Positions 1,470 to 51,691 of a DNA stretch of 51,691 bases are shown piece by piece. The position numbers and the translations under genes are program-made. The first letter of the stretch is position 1; each line of letters starts with the position of its first letter. The notes below the pieces were generated by a model. It had not been told where the DNA came from. It was given only the letters and a program-made list of their open reading frames with translations, and did no database searches. Source of the stretch: a virus; the IMG/VR virus record IMGVR_UViG_3300020596_000030, positions 1-51,691 of that record; one strand, written 5' to 3'.

Positions 1470-1793
1470 ATGAACATGTGTCCGCTGTGCAATTCACTAA
1501 TAGAAATAGACATTGCTTGGGCTAAAAAGAACGGTAGGGTTTTTTGCGGTACGTGCTGTAAAAGTTTTGACGTAATAATTAAGCAAGAGCCAGAGCCAGA
1601 GCCAGAGCCAGAGAAGAGTACCATTCCTCCAGTTCCAGAAAAATTGTGCGATGTATTTGGGTGTGACGGATGTAATAAAAATTCAGACCCGTATGGGGTG
1701 GATCACGATAAGAGATGTTCACACTGTAAGGAAAAGCATGAGGAAGATCATTCGGAGTTCCTTATGCAAGTTAATGAAGACTTCTTTGAATAG
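1470..1793 (+). CDS. Cys-rich zinc-ribbon-like protein with Glu-Pro repeat
   Basis: 107 residues. An N-terminal CPLC...CGTC pair (residues 4-7 and 27-30) forms a likely zinc ribbon; a linker of Glu-Pro repeats follows; then CDVFGCDGC and CSHC give a second probable metal site. The C-terminus is acidic. The linker comes from a short run of GAGCCA units near 1588-1614, which could vary in copy number. Ribosome site AGGGGG precedes the ATG. Function unknown; the architecture suits a nucleic-acid or protein adaptor. Confidence 0.65.
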   Translation: MNMCPLCNSLIEIDIAWAKKNGRVFCGTCCKSFDVIIKQEPEPEPEPEKSTIPPVPEKLCDVFGCDGCNKNSDPYGVDHDKRCSHCKEKHEEDHSEFLMQVNEDFFE

Positions 1794-10333: not shown

Positions 10334-10625
10334 AAGGAACGTAAAGGATAGGATTACTCATATTAGGAATTCAATGCTAATTCAAGATCCGTTTCCAGAG
10401 CAAACACTTGAGAAGTCTAGAAACCGTTTTTTTGCAATGCTTAGTGCAAAGTCTAGCCTATGGAGTAAACTTCTACTTAAAAACGCAGAAACAGTGGCAA
10501 AACATGGACACAAAGTAAAGCAAGTAGAGGAGATCAGCATCTGGAAGGCTTACAGAATGGGATACCAACAAGCATATAAAGAAATTCTTGAAAACGTAGG
10601 TGATTGCTGGGAGGAGAGGAAATGA
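10308..10625 (+). CDS. Unknown 105-residue protein
   Basis: GTG start behind AGGAGAACAGG, inside the end of the lipoprotein gene. Basic and helical, with no membrane span. Ends by ATGA overlap with the next gene. Confidence 0.6.
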   Translation: MDNLLQLPKRNVKDRITHIRNSMLIQDPFPEQTLEKSRNRFFAMLSAKSSLWSKLLLKNAETVAKHGHKVKQVEEISIWKAYRMGYQQAYKEILENVGDCWEERK

Positions 10626-13381: not shown

Positions 13382-13860
13382 GGGTAGAGTCAAAAGCATT
13401 GACCGAAACCAGAACAGATGAGGCTAAAAAAGTAAGAAAACAATCTATGAAAGACGGCAAAGATTTTTGTCCAAGAAGAGGTAAGGTGCTGGTTCCAAGA
13501 AATGATGAAGTTTCAAACTGCATAAGTGCTAATATATCGAAAGAAGCTTATATTGTGCAAACCGTAGCCTATTCTAAATCAACTAGAGATAAACATGTAG
13601 ACGTTAGAGGTAAGGTAAATGGTGAGGCCAACACACTTAGTACGGGTGATGGATGTAGTAACCAGAGTACTCAAAATTTTGTAGCCAGGGTAGTGATAGC
13701 CGGAACAGTTGACCTAAGACACGGCGATGAAGACCTGAACTGGAACGGGTATAGAGACGGATACCAGGTCTATGATAAGAACAATCTAGCTCCAGCGTTA
13801 AAGGTCTGTCAAAAAGCATTAAAAATCAACACACTACGTATCACGGCGATGAAGACCTGA
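13378..13860 (+). CDS. DNA cytosine-C5 methyltransferase, 5' part (target-recognition region), frameshifted
   Basis: This 160-residue frame holds what is normally the C-terminal third of a C5 methyltransferase: target-recognition segments such as EVSNCISA and EANTLSTGDGCSNQST. It ends out of frame because the 122 bases at 13720-13841 are repeated at 13842-13963. With one copy removed, this frame runs without a stop through 14648, giving one 382-residue protein in which recognition domain and motifs IX-X precede motifs I-VIII. GTG start coupled to the upstream gene. As sequenced it would not be active alone. Confidence 0.75.
   Translation: MRVESKALTETRTDEAKKVRKQSMKDGKDFCPRRGKVLVPRNDEVSNCISANISKEAYIVQTVAYSKSTRDKHVDVRGKVNGEANTLSTGDGCSNQSTQNFVARVVIAGTVDLRHGDEDLNWNGYRDGYQVYDKNNLAPALKVCQKALKINTLRITAMKT
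13720..13841 (+). repeat. 122-bp tandem repeat, copy 1
   Basis: Identical over all 122 bases to the adjoining copy. The unit is not a multiple of three, so the duplication shifts the reading frame of the methyltransferase gene. Confidence 0.97.
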
Positions 13861-13963
13861 ACTGGAACGGGTATAGAGACGGATACCAGGTCTATGATAA
13901 GAACAATCTAGCTCCAGCGTTAAAGGTCTGTCAAAAAGCATTAAAAATCAACACACTACGTAT
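13842..13963 (+). repeat. 122-bp tandem repeat, copy 2
   Basis: Direct head-to-tail copy of 13720-13841 with no mismatch. Lack of any divergence means the event is recent, under active exchange, or an assembly error. Confidence 0.97.
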
Positions 13964-14081
13964 CCGCAAACTTACACCTACCGAATGCTGTAGGCTTCAG
14001 GGTTACCCTGATAACCATCTAGATAGTGGCATTGATCAAAAAGGTGAAGTAGTTAAAATTTCGGATAATCAAAAATATAAA

Positions 14082-30159: not shown

Positions 30160-30780
30160 TTACAAACTAATCACTTGCTTAAGAAACTTAATGTTAAGAG
30201 CTTCTTGATTTTGTTGAGCAGCGTCATCATCTTTACCGGCATCCTTGGCAGATTCGGTGGCATAGGTGGCAGCTTCGATGGCATAATGGGCGGTATAGGC
30301 TGCAGCATAGTCAGCTTCGGTGGCATAGGTAGCATAGGCATAGTTGGCGGCATAGACGGCAAAATAGACGGCAAGGGCAGCGCTGGCGGAATCACTGGAA
30401 ACACAGGCAGCACTGGAAACAAAGCGGGCACTATTGGTAGCGCTTATATGCCTCCTAACCTCTAATAGTTGAGCATATGTCAAGATATTGAAATTATTAA
30501 CGGTTTTAAGAAAATTGATGCAATCACTAAGGCGTTTGTCACCTGGATGCTTATCTTCAAACATATGTAATACACTTTCAGCGCATAGCGTTGCCCATTT
30601 AACCAGTTGATTCCTGATTAATACCTTCCTTGCAATCCAAATTTTATCGTCGTAGTCAAGATCAGGTAAGTCCAGGAAATCATTAAGACTTCCGCTAAAA
30701 TCAGCATGGTGTTCTAGAAAAACCTTATACCTGTCAGCACAGGGTTTAAGGCTTTTCAAGAATTCTTTGTTAATTTGCAT
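30160..30780 (-). CDS. Ala/Tyr-rich Imm5-like protein, intact copy
   Basis: 206 residues. Residues 1-110 are a helical domain with KWATLCAESVLHMFEDKHPG (about 61-80), the core I associate with the putative Imm5 immunity-protein family; residues 115-185 are a low-complexity helical run of Ala/Tyr/Ser; the end is LNIKFLKQV. In bacteria relatives occur near polymorphic toxins and in phages; the function is unproven. Two paralogues lie at 50912-51527 and from 51586. AGGAG ribosome site; own promoter at 30802-30829. Embedded leftward between rightward tail genes, like a moron. Confidence 0.65.
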   Translation of the reverse strand: MQINKEFLKSLKPCADRYKVFLEHHADFSGSLNDFLDLPDLDYDDKIWIARKVLIRNQLVKWATLCAESVLHMFEDKHPGDKRLSDCINFLKTVNNFNILTYAQLLEVRRHISATNSARFVSSAACVSSDSASAALAVYFAVYAANYAYATYATEADYAAAYTAHYAIEAATYATESAKDAGKDDDAAQQNQEALNIKFLKQVISL

Positions 30781-30931: not shown

Positions 30932-33900
30932 ATGATTCGTTCCAGAGTAAATTTTTTAGGACAAATGAGGTTGGACGTTCCCCACATGAGGGCTATTGAG
31001 TCTGGAGGTTCTAACGATTTCGATGAGTTACTCTCCTCACTCATTACTAACGAAAATAAATCTTATGTAATTCGCGGTTTTGAGCTAGAAATGGCAGGCT
31101 CTATTGGGGCGTCTGCTTCCAATCTACAGATGATTGTGTCTGGTTCTGCCATGTTGCATGGACAATCCAATACTTCCGGTACATTCTTTCAAGTAAGAGA
31201 GGGAACTGCGAATGAAACCCTATCGTCCACCACTAATTCTAAAATTGTAGGTGCGTTTACGCCCAGTGCTCTAAACTATGTGGGGCTTGAGTTTATTCGT
31301 CAAGTTGACGACTCTACTGCTATTCAAACCTACTTGTGGAATCCTACCGTAGGCGCTGAAATAGTAAAAACCCTTCCCTTCCTTGAGACTCTTGATTTTC
31401 AAATCATAATCTCCTCTACCTTGTTCGCATCTAACGTTATCCCTATCTCTATAGTAGAAACTGACACTGCAAACAACGTACTATCTGTCCAAGATCGTCG
31501 CCCTATGCTATTCAGATTGGGAACTGCAGGTGTAAGCACTCCAGACCCCTTTTATGATTATCCATGGACTAACGATTCAGAGGGCAGAGTAGAAAACTAC
31601 TGGCAAAGTTCGTCTTCCTTGAATTCTCCCTTTAGAGGTGGAGATAAGCAGATTCTTTCTTTCAAAGAAAACGACGACGCTCTTAAGACAGAAATAAAAC
31701 TACTCAAGGGTACTAATTATTGGTATTCTCCTGCTATTGGTGGCTCTATTTCGGGGCTTCGTTACGATGTAGCCAATACTCTCATGACAGGTGAAGGAAC
31801 TATCACCCATAGCTCATCCGTCGCTGGCCAGATGAATTGGGATGAGAATATTTTCCTTACGGTTATTTCCTCTCGTCTTAAGTATAAGCTAGAGGCATAT
31901 GCCGCCGGTACTAATCTAACACTAGCAGACGGCCAAGCTGCCTATATTAATATTATTCGTAATCAAGACATAACTCCACAGCTTATTTTCACAAACGGCT
32001 CTGGAGTAGTAACATCTGTAGGCTCAGTCTCCTGGACCACCCTACTAGAGGCAGATGATTTTATTAAGGTTGGCTCTGATGAAGATACGGAATACTATCA
32101 GATTTTAAGTATTGACTCTACAAGTCAAGTTACCCTTAAGACAGTATTCACTGGAACATCTACCGGTATCAACGGTATTGACGCTAAATACGCATACGGC
32201 AATTATCGCACAAACGCAGCTCCATCAACTGACCGACACATCAAGATTGCAGCAAGACAAGATGTTCCATTTGATGCAAATACTTACTGGCTAATGTTCA
32301 GAGACGACAATGGCGGTATCCCAAGGGTATATGTACGTTTCCTAGGTGCAGAGCTAGAACAGGGCGAGAGCCTTCATATTTCAGACGGAGTACCTCTAGC
32401 GGTACTTCAATACACTGGAAGTTCAGGAGACGGCGACAGTACTCCAGATTACACAAACGCTACTGTTGTTCCTGAAGTTAATCACTACCTAACTGACGGT
32501 GATAACCTAACTAAAGGGATTAAATCTCTAGACAAGTCTCTTTACAGCGTTGCCACTGCTGCCGCTGCTTCTTTGTCTCAATTGCGCATCACTCCTCATG
32601 AAACCCTAAGCGACTCCGTTCGTATTAGCGGTGCAGACGCGATTCTTGCTAGCGGCATCACACTTACCCAGTCAATGAAGAACTTGGTACTCTCCTTTGA
32701 GGGTGCTGTTGTTGATTTTACAACTGGTGATGTATTCAAGTCAGACGGGGTAACCGCTTTAGGTGTAAACTTTACTCCGTTCGCCTTGCCCGCAGGAGAA
32801 TCGATTTGGTACGCAGTCACCCTTACCTCAAGCATTTCAAATTCAGAAAACGAAATAACAGCTACTATTTCTGTAGTTCCAGCCTCCACGTCTGAAGCCG
32901 TTGTAGCCAATGCTCCTAAAGCTAAATACACCAAAGGGATTGCTCTTGGTCAGGTTCTAATCACTGATACCGCTGGTGTGATGGATGATATTGAATCTGA
33001 TCACATTCTTCAACTAGGTGTTATAGGCGGCTCCGGCGGCTCCGGCTCCGGCTCAGGCGAAGCTAAGGTAAATCTCATTGACCCTGTCTCCACCACCCTT
33101 CCCGCAGGTGTAAGTGCTGTAATTGATGACGTGACGATTGCCGACGATGATATTGTGTTGTTTACTAATCTAGCTGTAAATAACAACCGTGCTTATAAAG
33201 TCTCAGGAGTTGGTGTTGCTCTTGCGTGGGCCGCTCAAGATATCTTTGAAAACGGAATAGACCCGGTAGGTGGTGAGATTGTTAGGGCTACCGAAGGTGC
33301 TGGGTTTGAAGGAACTGCGGGTGTTTATAACGATTCAACATCTTCCTTTAATTTTAACGACTATGTTCGCTACTTCAGCGGCGCTAATTATTACGAACAA
33401 TCTTCTTTAAAATCCTCTACCATTGCAAATAATACAATAGGTACCCTGTTCACAGTAGCCTCGGCTGGCTCTGAGAACATGATTGTAGACTTTTCTATCG
33501 TTCGTAACGGTATTAAAGAAACAGGCACAGTAGTTATCACGACCAACGGTACAGACATTAGCTCACCTAAAACAGGTGCCGGTACTGGTATTACTGGCGT
33601 TGATCTTTACGCCGAGATTTCCGGCTCTGATGTTCTATTCCGTTATAATGCAGACGCATCCGGTTCTAATGGATTGGTTAAGTACTCCGTTAAGCGTTGG
33701 TCAGACTCAGTAGGCGGCCCCGCTGGACTTCCTAACTACTCAGGCTCTGGTATCTCAGGAACCTTGGCTGGCGGTGCAATTACCGAAATCCAATTCCACG
33801 GTGCGGGTGGGCTTCTAGACGGCGACGCTAACATGCGTTGGGATAATTCCGAAAAACAAATCAATTTAAATGGTTATTATATTGGTAAACTCTCCTCTCC

Positions 33901-34213
33901 GTTTACAATTGCTGACAATCAAACTACGTCCGCTACTGTAATCTCTTATGCAGCTGCTACTTATCGCAATGCTGTTATTGAGTACTCTATTGAACGTAAT
34001 GGCGAGAACAGATTGGGTACGTTATTTGTTGTTAATAATGGCACCGCGGCATCTATCAGAGACGAGAACGGGGATACCGGGGGCGTTGGAATTGACGATA
34101 TCGCAATTCCTTTTACCGCAACTATTTCAGCAGGAAACGTCTTGATTCAATATACTTCCAGCAACACTGGATTTACCGGCGTCTTTAAAGCTTCAATGCG
34201 CAGGTGGTCATAA
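30932..34213 (+). CDS. Large tail fibre / baseplate-attached protein
   Basis: 1093 residues. The N-terminal ~200 residues (RSRVNFLGQMRLDVPHMRAI...SVQDRRPMLFRLG) look like a baseplate attachment domain, followed by repeated beta-rich modules and a Gly/Ser hinge (GGSGGSGSGSG, near 700). The last 100 residues and an earlier segment near 830-930 are copies of one domain (IEYSIERNGENRLGTLFVVNNGT and VDFSIVRNGIKETGTVVITTNGT), which recurs at the end of the next gene. Likely a trimeric side or long tail fibre. Confidence 0.65.
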   Translation: MIRSRVNFLGQMRLDVPHMRAIESGGSNDFDELLSSLITNENKSYVIRGFELEMAGSIGASASNLQMIVSGSAMLHGQSNTSGTFFQVREGTANETLSSTTNSKIVGAFTPSALNYVGLEFIRQVDDSTAIQTYLWNPTVGAEIVKTLPFLETLDFQIIISSTLFASNVIPISIVETDTANNVLSVQDRRPMLFRLGTAGVSTPDPFYDYPWTNDSEGRVENYWQSSSSLNSPFRGGDKQILSFKENDDALKTEIKLLKGTNYWYSPAIGGSISGLRYDVANTLMTGEGTITHSSSVAGQMNWDENIFLTVISSRLKYKLEAYAAGTNLTLADGQAAYINIIRNQDITPQLIFTNGSGVVTSVGSVSWTTLLEADDFIKVGSDEDTEYYQILSIDSTSQVTLKTVFTGTSTGINGIDAKYAYGNYRTNAAPSTDRHIKIAARQDVPFDANTYWLMFRDDNGGIPRVYVRFLGAELEQGESLHISDGVPLAVLQYTGSSGDGDSTPDYTNATVVPEVNHYLTDGDNLTKGIKSLDKSLYSVATAAAASLSQLRITPHETLSDSVRISGADAILASGITLTQSMKNLVLSFEGAVVDFTTGDVFKSDGVTALGVNFTPFALPAGESIWYAVTLTSSISNSENEITATISVVPASTSEAVVANAPKAKYTKGIALGQVLITDTAGVMDDIESDHILQLGVIGGSGGSGSGSGEAKVNLIDPVSTTLPAGVSAVIDDVTIADDDIVLFTNLAVNNNRAYKVSGVGVALAWAAQDIFENGIDPVGGEIVRATEGAGFEGTAGVYNDSTSSFNFNDYVRYFSGANYYEQSSLKSSTIANNTIGTLFTVASAGSENMIVDFSIVRNGIKETGTVVITTNGTDISSPKTGAGTGITGVDLYAEISGSDVLFRYNADASGSNGLVKYSVKRWSDSVGGPAGLPNYSGSGISGTLAGGAITEIQFHGAGGLLDGDANMRWDNSEKQINLNGYYIGKLSSPFTIADNQTTSATVISYAAATYRNAVIEYSIERNGENRLGTLFVVNNGTAASIRDENGDTGGVGIDDIAIPFTATISAGNVLIQYTSSNTGFTGVFKASMRRWS

Positions 34214-35742
34214 TGATTAATACAACTAAATTTAGTGGTCCAGTTAGGCCTGGCATTTTGTCAAGTGATCCAGTTGATCCCAAAAACGGCGATATCTATT
34301 ATAATAGTTCTTTGGAGGTATTTCGCATATACCAGGCCGGCACATTTAAAACAGTTGCTGATACTTCTGCTATTATCTCAGAATTTATTGACTCAGGATT
34401 TAGGATTCAAAATAGCAGTGACTCTACAAAGAAGATTGCTTTTGACGCCGCAGCTATTGCTACCTCCACAACGAGGACCTTAACTCTTCCCAATGCGAAC
34501 GTTAACCTAGGCGAAGTAAACTCAAGCATACAGACTGACGGATCACGGCCATTTGCAGCCGATCAATCCGTCGGTGGTTTTAAACTAACCAACCTGGCTT
34601 CTGGTACCGCTTCTGGTGATGCTATAACTAAAGCACAGCTTGATGCGATCTCTTCAATCATTCAAAACTTCGAATGGCAAGAATCCGCAATAAGTGTGGA
34701 ACTAGATTCCACGACAATTGTGGCCCCGTCTCTGGGCGACCGATACCTTGTTGCCGGAACAGGAACAAATGCTTTTGCCACCCATGACAACACTATTGCC
34801 GAGTGGGATGGTGCGGCATGGGTATTTACTGTACCTACTACTGGAACTTTTATCTCAGTGGATGATGAAAGCGACGGCTTATATCAGTTCGGCGGCGTGT
34901 CTTGGACGAAAAAATACTTTGAAGCCACTACTGCAAGCACTGGACTTGTTAAAGTTGGATTTGATGTTCGGCTGGATACCAGCTCTGCCGGTGACGGTTT
35001 GGGTTTCGCTGGCGGTACGTTAAGCGTAAATGTAGATAGCTCAACAATTGAGATTAATGCCGATATCCTTAGAGTAAAAGACGCGGGTATTACCTCTGCA
35101 AAGCTAGCTCCCTCATTAGATCTAGGGACTCCATCCGTTCTGGTCGGTACCTACATTACCGGAACTGCCTCAGGACTAACCGCTGGAAATGTAACTACTA
35201 ACGCTAACCTAACAGGACCAATCACTTCAGTAGGTAACGCAACCTCTGTAGCTAGTCAGACCGGCACCGGTAGCACCTTTGTAATGAACACGTCTCCCAC
35301 ACTAGTTACTCCGAATATCGGGGCGGCTACTTTAGGTGGGGACATGACTCTTGGGACAAACGTTCTAATCCACGGATCTGGCGGATTAAAGCGAGGCACG
35401 TCAACTAGTAATTTTGTACAGGAAGAGTATTTTCACAGTATTGCGCTATCTGCATCCCAGACAAATATTACGATTACTGAACTTACTTTTGCCCACGCGA
35501 CTTACGCTGCCTTAAAAATGACCTATTATATTAAGGAAGCTACGTCTAATGACGTTCGTATAGGGGATTTGCTTGTCGTAAGTAATGGTACGGCAATCGA
35601 CTTTGTGGATACTGGCGCACAAACAGATCCTACTGGAATTACATTTTCAGCAGTAATTAGCGGTTCAGATGTTATTATTCGTTATTCTTCTGGTTCAAAC
35701 GGAGCTACACTAAGAGCAGATGTGAAAAGATTCTTAGCTTAA
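34213..35742 (+). CDS. Tail fibre protein
   Basis: 509 residues; ATG overlaps the previous stop (TAATG). Starts with a short domain shared in style with the three following genes (DPKNGDIYYNSSL). The centre has GDRYLVAGTGTNAF...IAEWDGAAWVFTVP, the DUF2793-like fibre motif. The C-terminal ~95 residues (MTYYIKEATSNDVRIGDLLV) match the duplicated end domain of the upstream fibre. Probably a distal fibre segment or adaptor. Confidence 0.65.
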   Translation: MINTTKFSGPVRPGILSSDPVDPKNGDIYYNSSLEVFRIYQAGTFKTVADTSAIISEFIDSGFRIQNSSDSTKKIAFDAAAIATSTTRTLTLPNANVNLGEVNSSIQTDGSRPFAADQSVGGFKLTNLASGTASGDAITKAQLDAISSIIQNFEWQESAISVELDSTTIVAPSLGDRYLVAGTGTNAFATHDNTIAEWDGAAWVFTVPTTGTFISVDDESDGLYQFGGVSWTKKYFEATTASTGLVKVGFDVRLDTSSAGDGLGFAGGTLSVNVDSSTIEINADILRVKDAGITSAKLAPSLDLGTPSVLVGTYITGTASGLTAGNVTTNANLTGPITSVGNATSVASQTGTGSTFVMNTSPTLVTPNIGAATLGGDMTLGTNVLIHGSGGLKRGTSTSNFVQEEYFHSIALSASQTNITITELTFAHATYAALKMTYYIKEATSNDVRIGDLLVVSNGTAIDFVDTGAQTDPTGITFSAVISGSDVIIRYSSGSNGATLRADVKRFLA

Positions 35743-35787
35743 TTCACATATTCTCTTTAAGGATTGATGGAATTAAAGAGGTGTTAA

Positions 35788-37563
35788 ATGTCAGATAATT
35801 TCAAGCAAATTTCTAAAGGGATTGATCTTAGTCCCCAATCCGCGGACCCTACTAGTCCTGTTGATGGCGATTTCTATTTTTCAGATGGAACTGCACGCGC
35901 AATTGGTCTTTGGCAATATAAAGATGCTGTATGGGCAGCTATTGCTGGTACTGGCGGCGTAGGCTCTGGAGGCTCAAGCAGCTTAAAAAATCTAACTATT
36001 TTAGGATATACTCTAAGTGATGAAACTGTATTTAATAGTACCTTCACTACAGATCTAAGTGGCTGGACAGTAGGTGCGGGCAATACGCAGGTAGCTCCTG
36101 GATATTTACAACAGACTTATAGCGGCGGTGGTGGTCCAGCCAGTCAAGTAGTTGCTACTATAACGGGCCGCACGTATTCTTTTTCTGGTACTTCCAGAAT
36201 GACAAGCGGAAGCGGTACTGCTTTTATACGGATTTACAACGGCACCGACAGTTCTGGAACTTTGTTACTACAAACTAGCAACACCACTACAAGTTGGGTA
36301 GTGCAGACTGGAAGTTTTGTAGCCACATCAGGGACCGTATTCATACAGCTATATAACGGGGGCGACCCTGTTACTATGCAGTTCGACGATATTTCGCTAA
36401 AAGAAAGAGTCCCGAACGCATATACGGTAATCAATCCAGACGATCACGGGAAAGTAATTAACATTGACAGTTATTCCGGCAACGTACCCGTAATTCTACC
36501 GGCTCCTAGTGCTGGTTTTATCGTAACAATTAAAGATTACACGGGCAACGCTTCAATCGGTAAAATATCAGTTTCAATGACCGGCAATCTAGATGGTGCT
36601 CCCAGTGTCGAAACCCTCCGTACAAATTACACGGCTGCTACTTTTATTTCAAACGGTACAAATTGGTTTAGGATTGGAAGATTTTACGGAAACGGTATTC
36701 TAGCTAGAGGTATCTTTGGCGGTGGACTACCTAGTAACTCGGCAGTTATTGATTATATATCCATACCTACGGCTTCAAATGCTACTTCATTTGGATCTTT
36801 GTCAGTCGGCCGAATACAATTGGGCGCGTACTCCAGTGCTGTGCGCGGACTATTTGTGGGCGGCTCTACTGGTTCAGATTCAAACCTAATAGACTATGTC
36901 TCTTTTTTAACACTAGCGAACGCGACTTCATTCGGTACTCTTACAGTTGCCAGATTGTATGTAGCCGGATGTGGTAGTGCTACACGAGGTGTAGCGGCTG
37001 GCGGCGACCAAGCTACTGTTCTTAAAAACACAATCGACTATGTAACATTTGCGACAACTGGGAATGCTATTAATTTCGGAAACCTTACTGTAGCTAGATC
37101 CGGTACGGGTGCCCTATCTTCCCCAACTCGCGGGGTTTGGGCTGGCGGTAATGACGGAGCGGAAACTGCGCTCATGGATTACGTAACCATAGCATCTACC
37201 GGAAACGCGACAAACTTTGGTAACTTAACAGCCGCTAGAAACTATGAGTGCGGCGCTTCTAGTTCAACTAGAGGTTTGTTTGCCGGTGGAGGCGCTGCCG
37301 GTGTAGTCAACGTAGATTACATTACAATCGCTACTGCGGCAAATGCCATCAATTTTGGCAGTTTGGCAGCAGCACGAACTCAACTAGCCGGGTGCTCTAG
37401 TCCTTTAAGGGCCGTATTTGCCGGTGGTTATGATGGCGCGGGTGCAGCATTAAATATGGTTTACTTCACTATCGCGTCTCTAGGAAACTCAACAACTTTT
37501 GGTAACTTAACCGTTGCCAGACGAGCTTTCGGCGGCTGTTCTAACGTACATGGAGGCCTCTAA
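35788..37563 (+). CDS. Receptor-binding fibre: CBM-like domain plus six-repeat propeller
   Basis: 591 residues. N-terminal attachment domain (about 1-55, FKQISKGIDLSPQSADP), then a jelly-roll-like insert (about 75-210) ending FDDISLKE, the style of CBM4/9 sugar-binding domains, then a short strand domain, then six repeats of about 48 residues from about 308 (RG-[IVL]-F-x-GG ... DYVTIATTGNA ... FGNLTVAR), ending CSNVHGGL. Six repeats suggest a beta-propeller or kelch-like disc. The N-terminus is nearly shared with the next two genes. Likely binds host surface glycans. AGAGG ribosome site. Confidence 0.7.
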   Translation: MSDNFKQISKGIDLSPQSADPTSPVDGDFYFSDGTARAIGLWQYKDAVWAAIAGTGGVGSGGSSSLKNLTILGYTLSDETVFNSTFTTDLSGWTVGAGNTQVAPGYLQQTYSGGGGPASQVVATITGRTYSFSGTSRMTSGSGTAFIRIYNGTDSSGTLLLQTSNTTTSWVVQTGSFVATSGTVFIQLYNGGDPVTMQFDDISLKERVPNAYTVINPDDHGKVINIDSYSGNVPVILPAPSAGFIVTIKDYTGNASIGKISVSMTGNLDGAPSVETLRTNYTAATFISNGTNWFRIGRFYGNGILARGIFGGGLPSNSAVIDYISIPTASNATSFGSLSVGRIQLGAYSSAVRGLFVGGSTGSDSNLIDYVSFLTLANATSFGTLTVARLYVAGCGSATRGVAAGGDQATVLKNTIDYVTFATTGNAINFGNLTVARSGTGALSSPTRGVWAGGNDGAETALMDYVTIASTGNATNFGNLTAARNYECGASSSTRGLFAGGGAAGVVNVDYITIATAANAINFGSLAAARTQLAGCSSPLRAVFAGGYDGAGAALNMVYFTIASLGNSTTFGNLTVARRAFGGCSNVHGGL

Positions 37564-38954
37564 TGGCTGATAATTTTTGGAATATTAGCAAAGGAATCAG
37601 CCTTAATCCTCAGGCTAGCGACCCGCTAAACCCTACTGATGGCGACGTTTACTATTCTGATGGTACGTTCAGAGCCAAAGGTGTCTGGCAATATAAAGAC
37701 GCAGCTTGGGTAGTAGGCGGCTCTGGAACTGGAGGTATGGCTTCTGGAAGTACTACTTCTGTAAAAACAGCAGACTACACTATTGTTGATTCAGATAAGG
37801 GCAAGATTGTTTTAGTAGACTCAACTACTGGACCTATCGATATCACATTGCCCGCACCTACTGCCGGATTTGTCGTAACCGTTAAAGATTCGGTCGGACT
37901 AGCTGCTACCAATAATATAGTTGTTCTTCCTGTTTCTCCAGCCACGCTAGATACTACCGATGGTCTTGATGTTTTAAATCTAGGATACCAAGCGGTCACT
38001 TATTTGGCAGACGGGACGAATTGGGCCCGTATATCTTATTTTGAAGGTGCGTCTCCAGGGCAGCGTGCCATATTAGGTCTAGGATTTTCAGTTTCGTTAG
38101 GTAGCATTTCTGTCAACAGCATGGATTATTTCAATATCTCGGTATTGGGGAATGCCGCTGATTTTGGAGATTTAACAGTAGCCAGGTACTCAGTAGGTGC
38201 GGTATCGTCCTCTACTCGCGGGGTTTGGGCATCAGGAGATACTGCCGGAGGCGGTTCTGGTGTTGCTACTATGGACTACGTGACAATTGCCACACTCGGA
38301 AATGGCATTAACTTTGGTAATATTTCAGTAACTAGAAACGCACTTTCAGGATGCGGGTCTTCCACCCGTGGGGTTTTTGGAGGCGGTTTAACGTCTGGTG
38401 TTGGTACATACCGCAACACTATTGATTACATTACAATCGCTACTACTGGAAATGCCGTAAACTTTGGCATTTTAACATTAGCTCGCGGACAGTCGACAGC
38501 TTGCTCTAATTCAACCAGAGGAATTTGGGCTGGTGGTAATACTCCTACTAAACAGACTACAATCGACTATATCACAATCGCTACTACTGGGAATGCCACA
38601 AGTTTTGGTGCCCTTGTAGAGGCAAAGACCGAACAGTTTTCGTGCTCAAGTAATACACGCGGAGTCTTTGCCGGTGGAAACGGAGCCGTAAACTATAAAA
38701 CGGTTATCGAATATGTGACTATCGCTACCACAGGGAATACTACAAATTTTGGAAGTTTAACAGTAGGAAGATCCTCTGCTGGAGGCACTTCAAGCACCAT
38801 TAGAGGCGTGTTTATTGGTGGTAACACTGGTGCCGATTCTAACGTCATCGACTACGTAACAATTGCTACTACAGGTAATGCTATTGATTTTGGCGATATG
38901 TTTCAAGCAAGATATTTCGGCGCAGCGGTTTCTGATTGTCACGGCGGCATATAA
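37563..38954 (+). CDS. Receptor-binding fibre paralogue 2 with six repeats
   Basis: 463 residues. Same N-terminal domain (FWNISKGISLNPQASDP), same strand domain (PTAGFVVTVKDSV) and about six 48-residue repeats from residue ~168; the first is divergent (RAILGLG). Lacks the CBM-like insert. Ends DCHGGI. The ATG shares one base with the previous stop (TAATG). Tandem copies may form mixed trimers or give a choice of receptors. Confidence 0.7.
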   Translation: MADNFWNISKGISLNPQASDPLNPTDGDVYYSDGTFRAKGVWQYKDAAWVVGGSGTGGMASGSTTSVKTADYTIVDSDKGKIVLVDSTTGPIDITLPAPTAGFVVTVKDSVGLAATNNIVVLPVSPATLDTTDGLDVLNLGYQAVTYLADGTNWARISYFEGASPGQRAILGLGFSVSLGSISVNSMDYFNISVLGNAADFGDLTVARYSVGAVSSSTRGVWASGDTAGGGSGVATMDYVTIATLGNGINFGNISVTRNALSGCGSSTRGVFGGGLTSGVGTYRNTIDYITIATTGNAVNFGILTLARGQSTACSNSTRGIWAGGNTPTKQTTIDYITIATTGNATSFGALVEAKTEQFSCSSNTRGVFAGGNGAVNYKTVIEYVTIATTGNTTNFGSLTVGRSSAGGTSSTIRGVFIGGNTGADSNVIDYVTIATTGNAIDFGDMFQARYFGAAVSDCHGGI

Positions 38955-38956
38955 TT

Positions 38957-38968
38957 GTGGTATTATAA
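38957..38968 (+). promoter_or_regulatory. Extended -10 promoter GTGGTATTATAA
   Basis: Exact consensus between fibre paralogues 2 and 3, 13 bases ahead of the GTG start, allowing paralogue 3 to be expressed separately. Confidence 0.6.
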
Positions 38969-38980
38969 TAAGAGGTTAAT

Positions 38981-40333
38981 GTGTCAAAGAATTTTTTCAA
39001 AATAAATCAGGGAATTAACCTTAATCCCCAATCTACAGACCCGGCGAATCCTATCGAGGGTTCTTTTTACTATTCTGACGGTACTGTTAGAGCTAAGGGA
39101 TTGTGGCAATATAAGAGCAGTGTTTGGACGATAGTAGGTACTGCCGGTGGATTAGCTTCTGCTGGTGCTAGTTCTATAAAAACAGCAGATTACACTGTCG
39201 TATCTACGGATAACGGCTCTGTTATTGAAGTTAATTCAACCTCAAATGACATTACCATAACCCTACCGACTGGACTTGTTACCGGATTTATAGTAACCGT
39301 AAAAGATCTATACGGGACGGCTGCGACTAAAAAGATTTTTGTCAATCCAAGCTCAGCCCAAATTGACGGAGCCAGCGGAATTGACGTTATTGATGTAGCT
39401 TTTAACTCTGTTAGCTACATTTACGACGGTACGTCCTGGTCTAGATTTGCAAATTTTGCAGGAGATAGTACCTCTGTTAGGGGTTTGTTTGGCGGTGGCG
39501 ATGCGCCTTCATCTGCTATTGAATATATATCAGTAGCAACAACAGGTAACGCTATTAGTTTTGGAAATTTGACTCGCACCGGTTATTTTGTCGCCTCTAT
39601 GGGAAATAGAACGCGAGGTTTGTGGGCGGGATCGTCTGCGTCAAATATTATTGACTACGTGACCTTCTCCACTCTTGGGAACGCCATTGACTTTGGTGAC
39701 CTTACAGTTGCTAGGTCTGAGACATCTGCCACAGCTAATAACACACGCGGGTTGGTGGTCGCGGGTACTAATGCCGGAAGGAGAGACATAATAGACTATG
39801 TGACTATTGCTACCTTAGGTAACGCTGTGGATTTTGGAGATTTAACAGGTCTAAGGACTGGTGTTGCAGCATGTGCCTCCACCACACGCGCTATCTTTTC
39901 TGGTGGTAACACACCTTCTGTTTTGAATCTCATCGACTACGTGACCATTGCGACTATCGGAAATGCCACAAGTTTTGGCACTTTGGCCAACTCTAGGGAA
40001 TACTCTGCCGCATGTTCGTCTTCTACCAGGGCAATGATTGGCGGCGGTGACGATGGCCCCGTAGTTCTTGCCGCAGAATATTTGACAATAGCCACTCTTG
40101 GAAACGGAACAACTTTTGGTAACTTGACCCTTGGACGGTGGGGTTTAGCTTCCTGCTCTAGTCAGGTCAGAGGCGTTTGGGCTGGAGGTTTCAATGCCGC
40201 TGCATCTTTGTCTTACAACACAATAGACTACGTAACTATAGCTACTACTGGCGCAGCAACAAGCTTTGGTACTTTAACAGTAACAAAAGCCGGTTTAGCT
40301 GGTTGCTCTAACGGACACGGTGGCCTAACCTAA
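38981..40333 (+). CDS. Receptor-binding fibre paralogue 3 with six repeats
   Basis: 450 residues, GTG start behind AAGAGG. N-terminal domain FFKINQGINLNPQSTDP, strand domain, then six repeats from about residue 167 (RGLFGGG, RGLWAGS, RGLVVAG, RAIFSGG, RAMIGGG, RGVWAGG) ending CSNGHGGL. No CBM-like insert. Its separate promoter is the only regulatory difference seen from the other two. Confidence 0.7.
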   Translation: MSKNFFKINQGINLNPQSTDPANPIEGSFYYSDGTVRAKGLWQYKSSVWTIVGTAGGLASAGASSIKTADYTVVSTDNGSVIEVNSTSNDITITLPTGLVTGFIVTVKDLYGTAATKKIFVNPSSAQIDGASGIDVIDVAFNSVSYIYDGTSWSRFANFAGDSTSVRGLFGGGDAPSSAIEYISVATTGNAISFGNLTRTGYFVASMGNRTRGLWAGSSASNIIDYVTFSTLGNAIDFGDLTVARSETSATANNTRGLVVAGTNAGRRDIIDYVTIATLGNAVDFGDLTGLRTGVAACASTTRAIFSGGNTPSVLNLIDYVTIATIGNATSFGTLANSREYSAACSSSTRAMIGGGDDGPVVLAAEYLTIATLGNGTTFGNLTLGRWGLASCSSQVRGVWAGGFNAAASLSYNTIDYVTIATTGAATSFGTLTVTKAGLAGCSNGHGGLT

Positions 40334-40344
40334 AGCTTAAAAAC

Positions 40345-40356
40345 GTGGTATTATAA
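40345..40356 (+). promoter_or_regulatory. Extended -10 promoter GTGGTATTATAA
   Basis: Exact consensus with AGGAG ribosome site close behind, heading the two-gene unit 40371-41637. Confidence 0.6.
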
Positions 40357-40370
40357 ACATAGGAGATAAT

Positions 40371-47843: not shown

Positions 47844-48252
47844 CTTCACAGCCCATTAGTTTCATATATTCATAATCCAGGACTATTGGCTTGTCTTTAA
47901 GGGAACTTAGGTCTACTACAGGCTCTTCGTTATCGTATGGAATGATATCACCATCTGTTATTTCGCTCACTATATTTATCTCTACACTGTCTTCTTCTAT
48001 CTCTGCAATATCTCTATAAACAGCAGTAAATGCATAGTTAATCTTCTCAGCTAGGTATCTCTCGTAAGAGAGAGAAACACCCTCGTCCTTGAATTTTCTA
48101 TTAAATCTTTGAATTATTTTAATTGCAAATTCTTCAAGGTGTTCTTTTTTGAATTCATTCCTCTTTAATTCCTGAAACAGGTCAATTAAATTGAACAACA
48201 GGTCGGGCGACCTAGGCTTACCCTTACCGATAATGTCGTTGAAGATAATCAT
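47836..48252 (-). CDS. Unknown 138-residue acidic protein
   Basis: Helical N-terminal half (LIDLFQELKRNEFKKEHLEEF) and acidic C-terminal half. Directly upstream of and overlapping the helicase gene, with its own promoter, so a helicase loader or partner is a reasonable guess; there is no motif to prove it. Confidence 0.55.
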   Translation of the reverse strand: MIIFNDIIGKGKPRSPDLLFNLIDLFQELKRNEFKKEHLEEFAIKIIQRFNRKFKDEGVSLSYERYLAEKINYAFTAVYRDIAEIEEDSVEINIVSEITDGDIIPYDNEEPVVDLSSLKDKPIVLDYEYMKLMGCEDE

Positions 48253-48258
48253 GATTAA

Positions 48259-48271
48259 CCTATAATACCAC
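48259..48271 (-). promoter_or_regulatory. Leftward extended -10 promoter GTGGTATTATAGG
   Basis: Minus-strand match overlapping the stop of the upstream gene. Heads the helicase-primase-ClpP group. Confidence 0.6.
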
Positions 48272-49180
48272 GGCTTTTAAATCTCTTAGCATTTTCCTAG
48301 CAGTCTTTATTTCTTCCTTGTACCTTGGTTTTTCTTTATTAACCGTTACAAAATCCCTTAGCCTGTGTTTCTTTTCGTTATGGTTCATCTTTTCAAAGTC
48401 TTCGCTGTTCTCATATAGGCTCATCCTATCCTCAAAGAGACTAAAGCTTTCTTCAGGATTTAGGTGATAGATGTCTTCGTTGTTTTCTGAAAACAAACAT
48501 CTGTAGTCTTGTGCTTTAATTCCCTTGTTAGGGAGGTTTATTTCAATTATCTTAAATCCTTGAACATCGTATAGCTCTTTCTTGCTAGCATCTCTAGACA
48601 GCTTTTTAGCCTCCTTTAGCTCTGGCTTTGTTACCTTCCTGTAACCCATTTTCCTAGGGTTTTCTAGGATAGCCTCACTGGAAGCCGCCACTGACTCATT
48701 GGTAAAGGCAAAGGCAACCTTAATGTCCTTGCCTACTGTGATATTTCGTGCTTTTCGACCACAAACGGCTGAAGTGTTATACAGCCTTTGACGCAAGAAG
48801 CTAATCAGGTTGTTCCTGTCTTTTCTTTTCATCTCTATTTCGTCTGGAATTTCGTTGTTTTTGAGCTTATGTTTATCCACGGCTTTTTGGTTGGCCTCTT
48901 TGTTGTTCCTGAGTGAATAGATACTCATGTAGCTAATCATGTAAACATTAGTAACCGCAATGATATCGTCTAACCCGTATCCGACTTTTTCAAAGTTGGG
49001 TTTTAGTTTGTCGTACATAATACGGGCTGTTTGTTTTACGATAGGCTCAAACTCTGCAATCCATGTTGGGTCTGGGTTTTCTACTTTTTCGAGATACTCA
49101 TGTCTAAGTATGAGCATTTCAAAATCATCCTTGTACGTGTATCTTTTTTTCTCAATAGGCAATTCATTATCAAAATCCAT
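48260..49180 (-). CDS. Unknown 306-residue protein, possibly sigma-factor-like
   Basis: ATG at 49180 behind GAGGAAT. Residues ~50-160 are helical with VGYGLDDIIAVTNVYMISYM and NNLISFLRQRLYNTS, which recalls the ordering of sigma70 region 2 (EDLxQ helix, then a F-xx-YA/R-x-L helix). The rest is basic, with no clear region 4. A phage sigma factor could explain the repeated promoter word, but the likeness is weak and other helical proteins fit as well. Confidence 0.5.
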   Translation of the reverse strand: MDFDNELPIEKKRYTYKDDFEMLILRHEYLEKVENPDPTWIAEFEPIVKQTARIMYDKLKPNFEKVGYGLDDIIAVTNVYMISYMSIYSLRNNKEANQKAVDKHKLKNNEIPDEIEMKRKDRNNLISFLRQRLYNTSAVCGRKARNITVGKDIKVAFAFTNESVAASSEAILENPRKMGYRKVTKPELKEAKKLSRDASKKELYDVQGFKIIEINLPNKGIKAQDYRCLFSENNEDIYHLNPEESFSLFEDRMSLYENSEDFEKMNHNEKKHRLRDFVTVNKEKPRYKEEIKTARKMLRDLKAVVL

Positions 49181-49401: not shown

Positions 49402-50445
49402 TTAGACTACGCCTTGTTTGCTGTAGATTTGTTTTAGTAGTTTTTCAGCCATTTCATGGTTATTTTTAATTGCATCGATGTATTCGTTTTTAGAAGTAAA
49501 GCTTTGTCCATCGTAGTTGTATGTCCTATTGTTAGGACGTTCTACCAGGCTGAGCATTTTAGATAGCTCAAAAATCTCTTCTTCCATGTTCGTAATACCA
49601 GCGTTGTAATCAAAAGTAATTTGACCAGACCTACCGGCAGCACCGCGAGTGCTTTCGGTCATTTCAATATAGATTTTGTGACCAGAGAGCTGCGATTTGC
49701 CCTTAAAGTCTTTCATTTCGGTTTCTAGGCTTTCACCCGTAGCGGTTTTTTTGCCGTCGGCTGAATTATCCCTAGTGATTTTGACGAAGTACTCGTAAGT
49801 GTGTTTCTGAGCCCAACCGCCAGCCATTTTTTCTTTGGGGCCGTAAGATCCAGCTTCCATGTTGCCGCGAATGTGCGCGGTACTGATCAGGGCGATCTTA
49901 TTGCGTCGTATAAAAGGCATAATAGCCTTTAGACCGTCCTGGATAGTTTTGGCATGATCACCCATCAAATGGTTAGTGATACTGTCCCTATTGGACTCCT
50001 TGACGCCTTGGATACCGGTTAATGAGTCAATGATAATGAGTTTAAGAGGCATTCCCTGCTCTACCATGGGGAAAATGTCTTTCTTAAGACGATCAAAAAT
50101 AAATTCAGGCTCGTTTACGTTTTGAACGGCAAATCTATTCTCATCAATTCCCCAAAAGGGTTCAATCTTACCCATTTCACGCATTTCTGTATCAAACTTT
50201 AGTGCCATGTAGTCTTTATCCATGGAGTGAAGACCGGCAACAAAGGAGTTAGTCACTACAGACTTACCGGCTTTAGGTGGCCCCCAAAGTAGCATGAATT
50301 CCCCGAAAGGAAGTCCTGCGCTTTTGCTGAAAATCCAATTAAGGCTTGGGGACTTGGTTTTGATAGTGTTTTCAGGTAGATACGGGTTGTATTCCCTGTC
50401 AACAGCACCTTCCATTTTATTCAACTGAGTCATCCATTTAGACAT
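49402..50445 (-). CDS. RecA/UvsX-like recombinase
   Basis: 347 residues. Walker A GPPKAGKS (55-62), Walker B LIIIDSLTGI, a loop with MGDHAKTIQDGLKAIMP and ISTAHIRGNMEAG are arranged as in RecA/UvsX. ATP-dependent strand exchange for recombination, repair and recombination-primed replication. The ATG at 50445 has AAAGGTG ahead. The only recombinase seen here, and thus a candidate to act on the tandem repeats. Confidence 0.85.
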   Translation of the reverse strand: MSKWMTQLNKMEGAVDREYNPYLPENTIKTKSPSLNWIFSKSAGLPFGEFMLLWGPPKAGKSVVTNSFVAGLHSMDKDYMALKFDTEMREMGKIEPFWGIDENRFAVQNVNEPEFIFDRLKKDIFPMVEQGMPLKLIIIDSLTGIQGVKESNRDSITNHLMGDHAKTIQDGLKAIMPFIRRNKIALISTAHIRGNMEAGSYGPKEKMAGGWAQKHTYEYFVKITRDNSADGKKTATGESLETEMKDFKGKSQLSGHKIYIEMTESTRGAAGRSGQITFDYNAGITNMEEEIFELSKMLSLVERPNNRTYNYDGQSFTSKNEYIDAIKNNHEMAEKLLKQIYSKQGVV

Positions 50446-50456
50446 CTTTACACCTT

Positions 50457-50690
50457 TCAAAATTGATTAGTACGAGAAATAACTTTTTTAATAGCGCGAT
50501 ACTGATTTTTAGCAGCGTTTACAATACTAATTCGCTCCACAGGAGTAGTTGTGACGATTTCCTTACCTTCAGCGTCGGTAGTGAGATTGTAGGTTAGCTT
50601 AGTCACTTTATTGCTAACACGATAGTCAGGCACTACAGGTAGTTTAAGTTTAAGTGCTTTGCGAATTTTCTTGGCTTTTTTTGCGTTCAT
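50457..50690 (-). CDS. Unknown 77-residue basic protein
   Basis: Lys/Arg-rich, especially at the N-terminus (NAKKAKKIRKALKLK), suggesting nucleic-acid binding. Directly upstream of the recombinase gene. No known family. Confidence 0.55.
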   Translation of the reverse strand: MNAKKAKKIRKALKLKLPVVPDYRVSNKVTKLTYNLTTDAEGKEIVTTTPVERISIVNAAKNQYRAIKKVISRTNQF

Positions 50691-50691
50691 A

Positions 50692-50898
50692 TTAAAATCC
50701 TTTGTTTTGTTTAATGGCCCATTGAGGAATAGAGCGAAGTTTATAGTCAGGTACTAGTTCTTCTTTACCCAAAAGATCGAAGTCATATGCTTGAAGGTGA
50801 CCACCCTTGCAATACATATAGTTGCTACAGATTTTTAGACCATCTCCATGTTTTTCCACTATTTCTTTCAGAGAATAGAACAGAATAATTGTTTCCAT
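50692..50898 (-). CDS. Unknown 68-residue protein
   Basis: ATG at 50898 has AAGGAG six bases ahead; an ATG two codons earlier is too close to that site. Mixed alpha/beta with CSNYMYCKGGH, a possible metal or disulphide pair. Confidence 0.55.
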   Translation of the reverse strand: METIILFYSLKEIVEKHGDGLKICSNYMYCKGGHLQAYDFDLLGKEELVPDYKLRSIPQWAIKQNKGF

Positions 50899-50911
50899 AA
50901 GCATCTCCTTT

Positions 50912-51322
50912 TTAAGCACCAGTTACTTGTTTAAGAAATTTAATATTTAAGGCTTGTTGTTGTTTAACACCATCATAGGTGTCACCGTATACTATAGCAA
51001 AATTGGTAGCATGGGCAGAGGTGGAAGTGCTGGCAGCACCGGCAGCATAGAAAGCAGAATGGTCAGCGGCAGCAAGGGCAGCATGGGCCGCATAGCGGGC
51101 AGCAAGGGCAGCATATTCGGCACCACTAGAGTCATATACTGTACTGTAGGCAGCATCATAGGCATCATAGGCAGCGGCAGCATAACTCTCAACCCCTAAC
51201 CTTTCAGTATCAGTCAAACTATTGAAATCATTAACAGATTTAAGAAAATCGATGCAATTACTAAGACATTTATTGCCTGGGCACTGTTCTTCAAACATAT
51301 GTACAACACATATGAACAACAC
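50912..51322 (-). CDS. Imm5-like paralogue 2, 3' part after frameshift
   Basis: Holds HMFEEQCPGNKCLSNCIDFL and the Ala/Tyr-rich helix, ending LNIKFLKQV like the intact copy at 30160. In frame only from a GTG at 51322 or the ATG at 51298. Removing one 13-base unit at 51296-51321 joins it to the 5' part, giving a 200-residue protein close in length to the intact copy. Confidence 0.6.
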   Translation of the reverse strand: MLFICVVHMFEEQCPGNKCLSNCIDFLKSVNDFNSLTDTERLGVESYAAAAYDAYDAAYSTVYDSSGAEYAALAARYAAHAALAAADHSAFYAAGAASTSTSAHATNFAIVYGDTYDGVKQQQALNIKFLKQVTGA

Positions 51323-51527
51323 TTTCAGCGCATAGCGTTGCCCACTTAACAGCTTGATTCTTGGTTAAAACCTTTTCTGCAACCCAAACTTTATCGTCGT
51401 AGTCAAGATTAGGTAAGTCTAGGAATTCACTAAAGCTTCCATCAAAATCTCCACTATGCCTTAGAAAACGCTTATAAATTCCAACACAAGGTCTAAGACT
51501 TTTCAGGAATTCTTTGTTAATTTGCAT
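51291..51527 (-). CDS. Imm5-like paralogue 2, 5' part, frameshifted
   Basis: Begins QINKEFLKSLRPC and runs to KWATLCAESVVHM exactly as the copy at 30160, then leaves frame within a 13-base tandem repeat and stops. The N-terminal ten residues are identical between the two paralogues, so the copies are fairly recent relatives. Confidence 0.65.
   Translation of the reverse strand: MQINKEFLKSLRPCVGIYKRFLRHSGDFDGSFSEFLDLPNLDYDDKVWVAEKVLTKNQAVKWATLCAESVVHMCCTYV
51296..51321. repeat. 13-bp tandem repeat causing frameshift
   Basis: Two units, CATATGTACAACA (51296-51308) and CATATGAACAACA (51309-51321), 12 of 13 identical. The intact paralogue has one unit at this place. 13 is not a multiple of three, so the frame breaks. 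Confidence 0.75.
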
Positions 51528-51560
51528 AAATATATCCCAGCCTCTCTTAACCTATTGTTA

Positions 51561-51573
51561 CATATAATACCAG
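51561..51573 (-). promoter_or_regulatory. Leftward extended -10 promoter CTGGTATTATATG
   Basis: Minus-strand TGGTATTATA, 34 bases ahead of the Imm5-like paralogue 2 start. A weak -35 (TTTGTA) lies 17 bases upstream. Confidence 0.55.
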
Positions 51574-51585
51574 ACATGTCAGCCC

Positions 51586-51691
51586 TTACAAACTAGAAGC
51601 CATTCTCAAAAACTGAAGATTCAAGGCTTGTTGATTTTGCCAAGCGTCATCATTAATAGAATTACTGGCAGAGCGGACAGCATTGGCAGCA
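51586..51691 (-). CDS. Imm5-like paralogue 3, C-terminal end, cut by window edge
   Basis: The last 34 residues of a third family member: Ala/Ser-rich helix, then DAWQNQQALNLQFLRM, matching the QALNIKFLKQV ends of the other two. The rest lies beyond the window. Confidence 0.5.
   Translation of the reverse strand, partial: AANAVRSASNSINDDAWQNQQALNLQFLRMASSL

What the first reader, a model, noticed from the sequence alone, without database searches (positions are those of the whole stretch)
50912..51527. 13-bp tandem duplication breaks a second gene, the Imm5-like paralogue
The paralogue at 30160 shows the undisturbed sequence. In this copy a 13-base unit (CATATG-A/T-ACAACA) appears twice, shifting frame in the middle of the helical core. 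Removing one unit gives a 200-residue protein. It is the same kind of lesion as in the methyltransferase gene. One mismatch between units means it is older or arose with a point change.
Basis: seen in the sequence. Interest (0 to 1): 0.6.

Follow-up and report, generated by a model that had tools for sequence, protein, structure and literature searches.

The report
Broken copy in phage immunity-gene array
A bacterial virus carries at least thirteen similar genes for proteins that resemble toxin antidotes, these genes appear to copy pieces from one another, and the copy at this spot has been broken by a short misplaced join.

Summary
A 13-base unit occurs twice, with one mismatch, at 51296-51321. 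It splits a minus-strand Imm5-like gene (51527-50912) into a 78-codon and a 136-codon frame. None of 12 paralogues compared has the insertion.

The wider context was not in the finding. The window belongs to a phage known from near-identical IMG/VR contigs, which together carry at least 13 Imm5_like (PF21805) paralogues: one solitary, a 7-gene tandem array, a 3-gene array and copies near recA. Related phages have none, or one to three. Between two otherwise near-identical contigs, 34 of 41 differences lie in these genes (10.9% of the aligned length), in clustered tracts that mostly match sibling alleles, as gene conversion would give. In the broken copy, a 49-base run identical to one paralogue ends exactly where the duplication starts; unit 1 carries that paralogue's base and unit 2 matches another paralogue exactly.

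Best reading: an out-of-register join between paralogues destroyed one redundant copy. Slippage plus a point change, or an assembly error, remain possible; no reads and no orthologue were available. The methyltransferase lesion is different: an exact 122-bp duplication, single in both relatives.

The parts
51296..51308 (-). 13-base unit 2 in gene order (plus strand CATATGTACAACA); this version is identical to paralogue G1_46571 at the site
51309..51321 (-). 13-base unit 1 in gene order (plus strand CATATGAACAACA); carries the distinguishing base found in paralogue G1_47298
51291..51527 (-). first piece of the broken Imm5-like gene, 78 codons; residues 1-73 align with intact paralogues
50912..51322 (-). 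second piece of the broken gene, 136 codons; aligns with positions 69-211 of the family profile, including the C-terminal motif
51323..51371 (-). 49-base run identical to paralogue G1_47298 (gene bases 157-205), ending where the duplication begins
51554..51582 (-). promoter-like site (CTGACA, 17 nt, AACAAT) upstream of the broken copy; several sibling copies have TTGACA
51586..51690 (-). C-terminal 34 codons of another Imm5-like paralogue, cut by the window end
30160..30780 (-). solitary intact Imm5-like paralogue, 206 aa
49402..50460 (-). UvsX/RecA-like recombinase downstream of the broken copy; anchors synteny to related phages

Best explanation
This is one member of a lineage-specific, recombining family of at least 13 Imm5_like genes in a large contractile-tailed phage. 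It was broken when sequence from a sibling gene was joined out of register inside the conserved block that encodes SVVHMFE. The join doubled 13 bases and shifted the frame in a core helix. The copy still has a promoter-like site but most likely yields only a truncated, non-functional N-terminal fragment. The phage can tolerate this because the family is redundant (11 other gene positions are complete in the sister contigs). Shown: the duplication, the frame split, the paralogue family, clustered tracts between strains, and the paralogue-identical tract abutting the lesion. Inferred: that the join was a conversion or template-switch event, and that the product is inactive. Inferred from family names only: that the proteins neutralise toxins.
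For: Copy counts and map. G001 v G002 over 45.7 kb: 34 of 41 differences, or 6 of 13 clusters, lie in the paralogues, which make up 10.9% of the length (binomial p 0.0015). In copy G2_7474 v G1_10388, 21 of 23 changes in bases 1-333 go to alleles present in siblings at the same position (null mean 9.0; 0 of 5000 draws reach 21). Broken copy v G1_47298: 29 consecutive variable sites identical over bases 157-204, although overall only 74 of 124 variable sites match; permutation p 2.5e-5 (none of 40,000), about 3e-4 after choosing among 12 paralogues. Unit 1 has G1_47298's base at the mismatch; unit 2 is identical to G1_46571. A second length error (an extra T) changes the C-terminus of G1_48627 within a tract of clustered differences from G2_45723.
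Against: The paralogues compared come from sister contigs, not from the window's own genome, whose main array lies outside the window. On the 3' side no single donor stands out (best p 0.011 of 12 tested), so the second parent is unproven. No exact donor for the G002 tracts was found among the copies at hand. Between G001 and G003 only one of 12 differences lies in a copy. Signs of decay are weak: two private changes at otherwise invariant columns (R17I before and E107G after the lesion), against up to five in an intact copy. Reads were not available.
Confidence: 0.52

Rival explanations
1. Ordinary replication slippage duplicated 13 bases within the gene; a later point change made the units differ.
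For: The units are adjacent and 12 of 13 bases are identical; small tandem indels also occur in the Ala-rich tails (two 12-bp indels between G001 and G002).
Against: Does not explain why the lesion lies exactly at the end of a 49-base paralogue-identical tract, or why both bases at the mismatch are paralogue alleles. The phage contigs differ at few sites outside these genes (7 differences in about 40.7 kb between G001 and G002), so a chance change within 26 bases is unlikely if the event is recent.
Confidence: 0.25
2. Assembly artefact: reads from two paralogues or strains were stitched out of register, so no real genome carries both units.
For: The window is a virus record of the IMG/VR kind, classed linear and probably a fragment; the same contig holds an exact 122-bp duplication that is single in both relatives.
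Against: De Bruijn joins need exact shared words far longer than 13 bases and would be in register (general knowledge, not tested). The frames on both sides are otherwise unbroken.
Confidence: 0.14
3. The frame change is used: a +1 shift at the end of the first frame (which ends GTT TGA, where +1 reads TTT GAA), or a hop between the duplicated ATG codons, makes some full-length protein; or changes in unit number switch the gene on and off.
For: The second frame stays open to the family's C-terminus; the first frame's stop falls in a GTT TGA context (read).
Against: None of 12 paralogues has the duplication and no other viral contig matched both units exactly; no Shine-Dalgarno-like stimulator is seen by eye; only two units are present.
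Confidence: 0.05

Closest known systems
Imm5_like family, Pfam PF21805 ('Imm-5 like putative immunity protein')
   Same: The intact window paralogue scores 29.1 bits against a cut-off of 25; all 14 members of alignment A2 match at E <= 0.01. BFVD's top structural match is an 'Imm-5-like domain-containing protein' of an uncultured Caudovirales phage (TM 0.67, E 1.5e-3).
   Different: The phage copies have about 50 conserved N-terminal residues outside the Pfam match and very variable Ala/Tyr-rich helical tails; immunity function has not been shown.
Homogeneous polyimmunity loci of bacteria (Zhang et al. 2012, PMC3482391; passages read)
   Same: Tandem arrays of four or more paralogues of one immunity-protein type; gene sets that differ between strains; no toxin gene recognised in the few neighbours examined here.
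   Different: Here they are on a phage, in several arrays on both strands, many with their own promoter-like site, and Imm5 is not among the types that the passage names as forming prominent homogeneous loci.
Other IMG/VR phage records with Imm5_like genes (G009-G023)
   Same: Related N-terminal domain; 13 of 15 records match the A3 profile.
   Different: One to three copies per matching record against at least 13 here (the records may be fragments).

Membership tests
PF21805 Imm5_like | Profile score above Pfam's curated cut-off | tested here: met
   Intact copy 30160-30780: 29.1 bits v 25; 14 of 14 aligned family members match at E <= 0.01. The two pieces of the broken copy, scanned apart, do not match it.
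PF21805 Imm5_like | Neutralises a cognate toxin | not testable with these tools
   No toxin recognised next to the copies examined; a dCMP/MafB19-type deaminase near array B may simply be nucleotide metabolism.
Homogeneous polyimmunity locus | Four or more tandem genes of one immunity type | tested here: met
   Seven copies in tandem on one strand at G001 about 44.66-49.32 kb.
Homogeneous polyimmunity locus | Probably one polycistronic transcript | tested here: inconclusive
   The seven are on one strand, but many copies have their own promoter-like site (read by eye).
Homogeneous polyimmunity locus | Genes are true immunity genes | not testable with these tools
   Rests on the family name only.
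Pseudogene by frameshift | Interrupted frame where homologues are open | tested here: met
Pseudogene by frameshift | Relaxed constraint after the lesion | tested here: inconclusive
   Private changes R17I and E107G at otherwise invariant columns; an intact sibling has five.

The most novel reading that the evidence does not exclude
The phage keeps a library of at least 13 Imm5-like antidote genes and reshuffles them by gene conversion and tail-repeat changes, so that it can meet changing host toxins or abortive-infection systems. Broken copies such as this one are the by-product of that shuffling and may still serve as donor segments.
Probability: 0.27. Interest if true: 0.75.

Novelty: new variant of a known kind. 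Interest (0 to 1): 0.42.

Why it matters
A frameshifted gene copy is ordinary. A phage lineage that has multiplied a predicted immunity-protein gene at least 13-fold, and whose strain differences concentrate in those genes, is not. It resembles bacterial polyimmunity loci and antigenic-variation families moved into a virus. If the proteins neutralise host toxins, this would be a direct way to study how a phage builds a diverse anti-defence repertoire.

Tried and rejected
Tried without result: tblastn of the intact window paralogue, and of the N-domain of another, against 50,697 phage records gave no match. An exact scan of viral contigs for both units gave none. A scan with the second piece of the broken gene gave none. 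Two scans of genome contigs gave no relative, so no host homologue was identified. PDB gave no significant sequence or fold match. Four paper searches on the family or on phage arrays: Imm5 with phage and immunity protein held two papers; tandem paralogs with gene conversion held 21, of which the 10 listed looked unrelated; 'polyimmunity loci' with 'phage' held three; a search for expanded paralogue arrays in phage genomes and one for Imm5-like or PF21805 held none. Of all these I read passages of PMC3482391 only; the others I saw as listings. The library covers open-licence PMC papers only, so absence there is weak.

Considered and rejected: decay evidence from invariant columns (too weak); a named 3' donor (not supported); re-initiation of the second frame (no ribosome-binding site seen by eye); mis-assembly between paralogues through shared words as the source of the 13 bases (would be in register; general knowledge).

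Full report
What is there. The duplication is in the sequence as described. On the plus strand 51296-51308 and 51309-51321 differ at one base of 13. Read on the minus strand, the gene that starts at 51527 runs for 78 codons and stops at 51291, and a second frame from 51322 to 50912 carries the rest. The solitary paralogue at 30780-30160 is open for 206 codons. A profile of the family places the two pieces at positions 1-73 and 69-211. Such an imperfect tandem pair is not expected by chance: mean 0.03 per simulated sequence in 30 simulations for units of 13 to 30.

Where it lies. The window is a virus record, probably a fragment. Scans brought in G001 (124,069 bp), G002 (46,345), G003 (59,232) and G004 (7,446). 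Window 1-33,411 matches G001 and G002 at about 99.8-99.9% identity, in reverse. Window 40.4-51.7 kb is in none of the four, except for paralogue-level matches. So the broken gene has no orthologue to compare with. The closest named recombinase match is Myxococcus phage Mx1, at 37.7% identity; the host is unknown.

The family. G001 alone has 11 copies: one at 10,388, seven in tandem at about 44.7-49.3 kb, and three at about 122.2-124.1 kb, the last cut by the contig end and complete in G003. G003 adds a copy at 58,762, cut by its end. The window adds the broken copy and the last 34 codons of another. The cut copies of G003 and of the window may be two ends of one gene, so the count is at least 13 (inference). 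The 11 positions that can be read in full are open frames; one of them, G1_48627, has an altered C-terminus. All 14 aligned proteins match PF21805. Complete paralogues share on average 64% identity over the first 111 residues and 39% over the Ala/Tyr-rich remainder (55 pairs). The predicted fold is mostly helix (mean pLDDT 80), with the lesion in helix 56-77. Four related records with a 57-67% identical recombinase, G005-G008, have no copy; 13 of 15 other IMG/VR records tested have one to three.

The family recombines. G001 and G002 differ at 41 places over 45.7 kb; 34 of these, or 6 of 13 clusters, lie in the paralogues, which are 10.9% of that length. In the solitary gene, 23 differences fall in two tracts. 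The window agrees with G001 at all 23, and 21 of the G002 bases are found in siblings at that position (null mean 9.0, none of 5000 draws as high). Two 12-bp indels change tail repeats, and a tract at the end of G1_48627 includes an extra T that alters its C-terminus. Against this, no exact donor was found among the copies at hand, chimeric assembly between paralogues cannot be fully excluded, and between G001 and G003 only one of 12 differences lies in a copy. A run-length test over 66 pairs of paralogues gave 3 pairs at p <= 0.01, only modest support.

The lesion as a join. In the broken copy, bases 157-205 are identical to G1_47298 for 49 bases, although that paralogue is among the less similar overall (74 of 124 variable sites). 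A run of 29 variable sites was reached in none of 40,000 permutations; allowing for 12 paralogues tried, p is about 3e-4. The run stops at the base where the duplication starts. Unit 1 has the base of G1_47298 at the mismatch, with one other difference; unit 2 equals G1_46571. A join from one paralogue into another, 13 bases out of register, explains both duplication and mismatch in one step. The 3' partner is not identified: the best of 12 tests gave p 0.011.

Surroundings. In the related phage locus L055 the order is ssb-like gene, p168, p76, p75, recA. In G001 the 7-gene array follows the p168 homologue directly; in the window the broken copy precedes two small genes and recA. The array therefore sits where this block has been split, and the two halves lie on opposite strands of the composite map (inference). 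Nine of 13 distinct copies, the broken one included, have a promoter-like site close upstream (counted by eye); the broken copy's first hexamer reads CTGACA.

The comparison with the methyltransferase gene fails. That lesion is an exact 122-bp repeat, single in G001 and G002, where the frame is open over 374 codons. It may be an assembly error.

Known relatives. The nearest concept is the homogeneous polyimmunity locus (PMC3482391, passages read). Tandem copies of one immunity type are met; immunity function is not shown. The finding itself is an ordinary broken copy; the recombining phage family around it is the more interesting result.

Noticed in passing
window 13720-13964: Exact 122-bp tandem duplication in a DNA methyltransferase gene; single copy and open 374-codon frame in G001 and G002. 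A one-base homopolymer difference lies upstream at 13431.
   Followed up: partly
L043 8058-8627 (G001 48058-48627): Imm5-like copy whose C-terminus is altered by an extra T relative to the G002 copy, inside a tract of clustered differences.
   Followed up: partly
window 33411-40361: Tail-fibre region where the near-identical phages part: G001 shares only about 0.9 kb at 89% identity here.
   Followed up: no
L043 9336-10918 and window 49402-50919: A replication block contiguous in related phage L055 is split here, with Imm5-like genes at both broken ends, possibly by recombination between inverted arrays.
   Followed up: partly
L053 14803-15162: A dCMP/MafB19-type deaminase gene near the 3-copy Imm5-like array; PMC3482391 links Imm5 in bacteria to deaminase toxins, but this may be nucleotide metabolism.
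   Followed up: partly
window 1582-1613: A 6-base repeat (AGCCAG) that differs in number between the window and G001.
   Followed up: no
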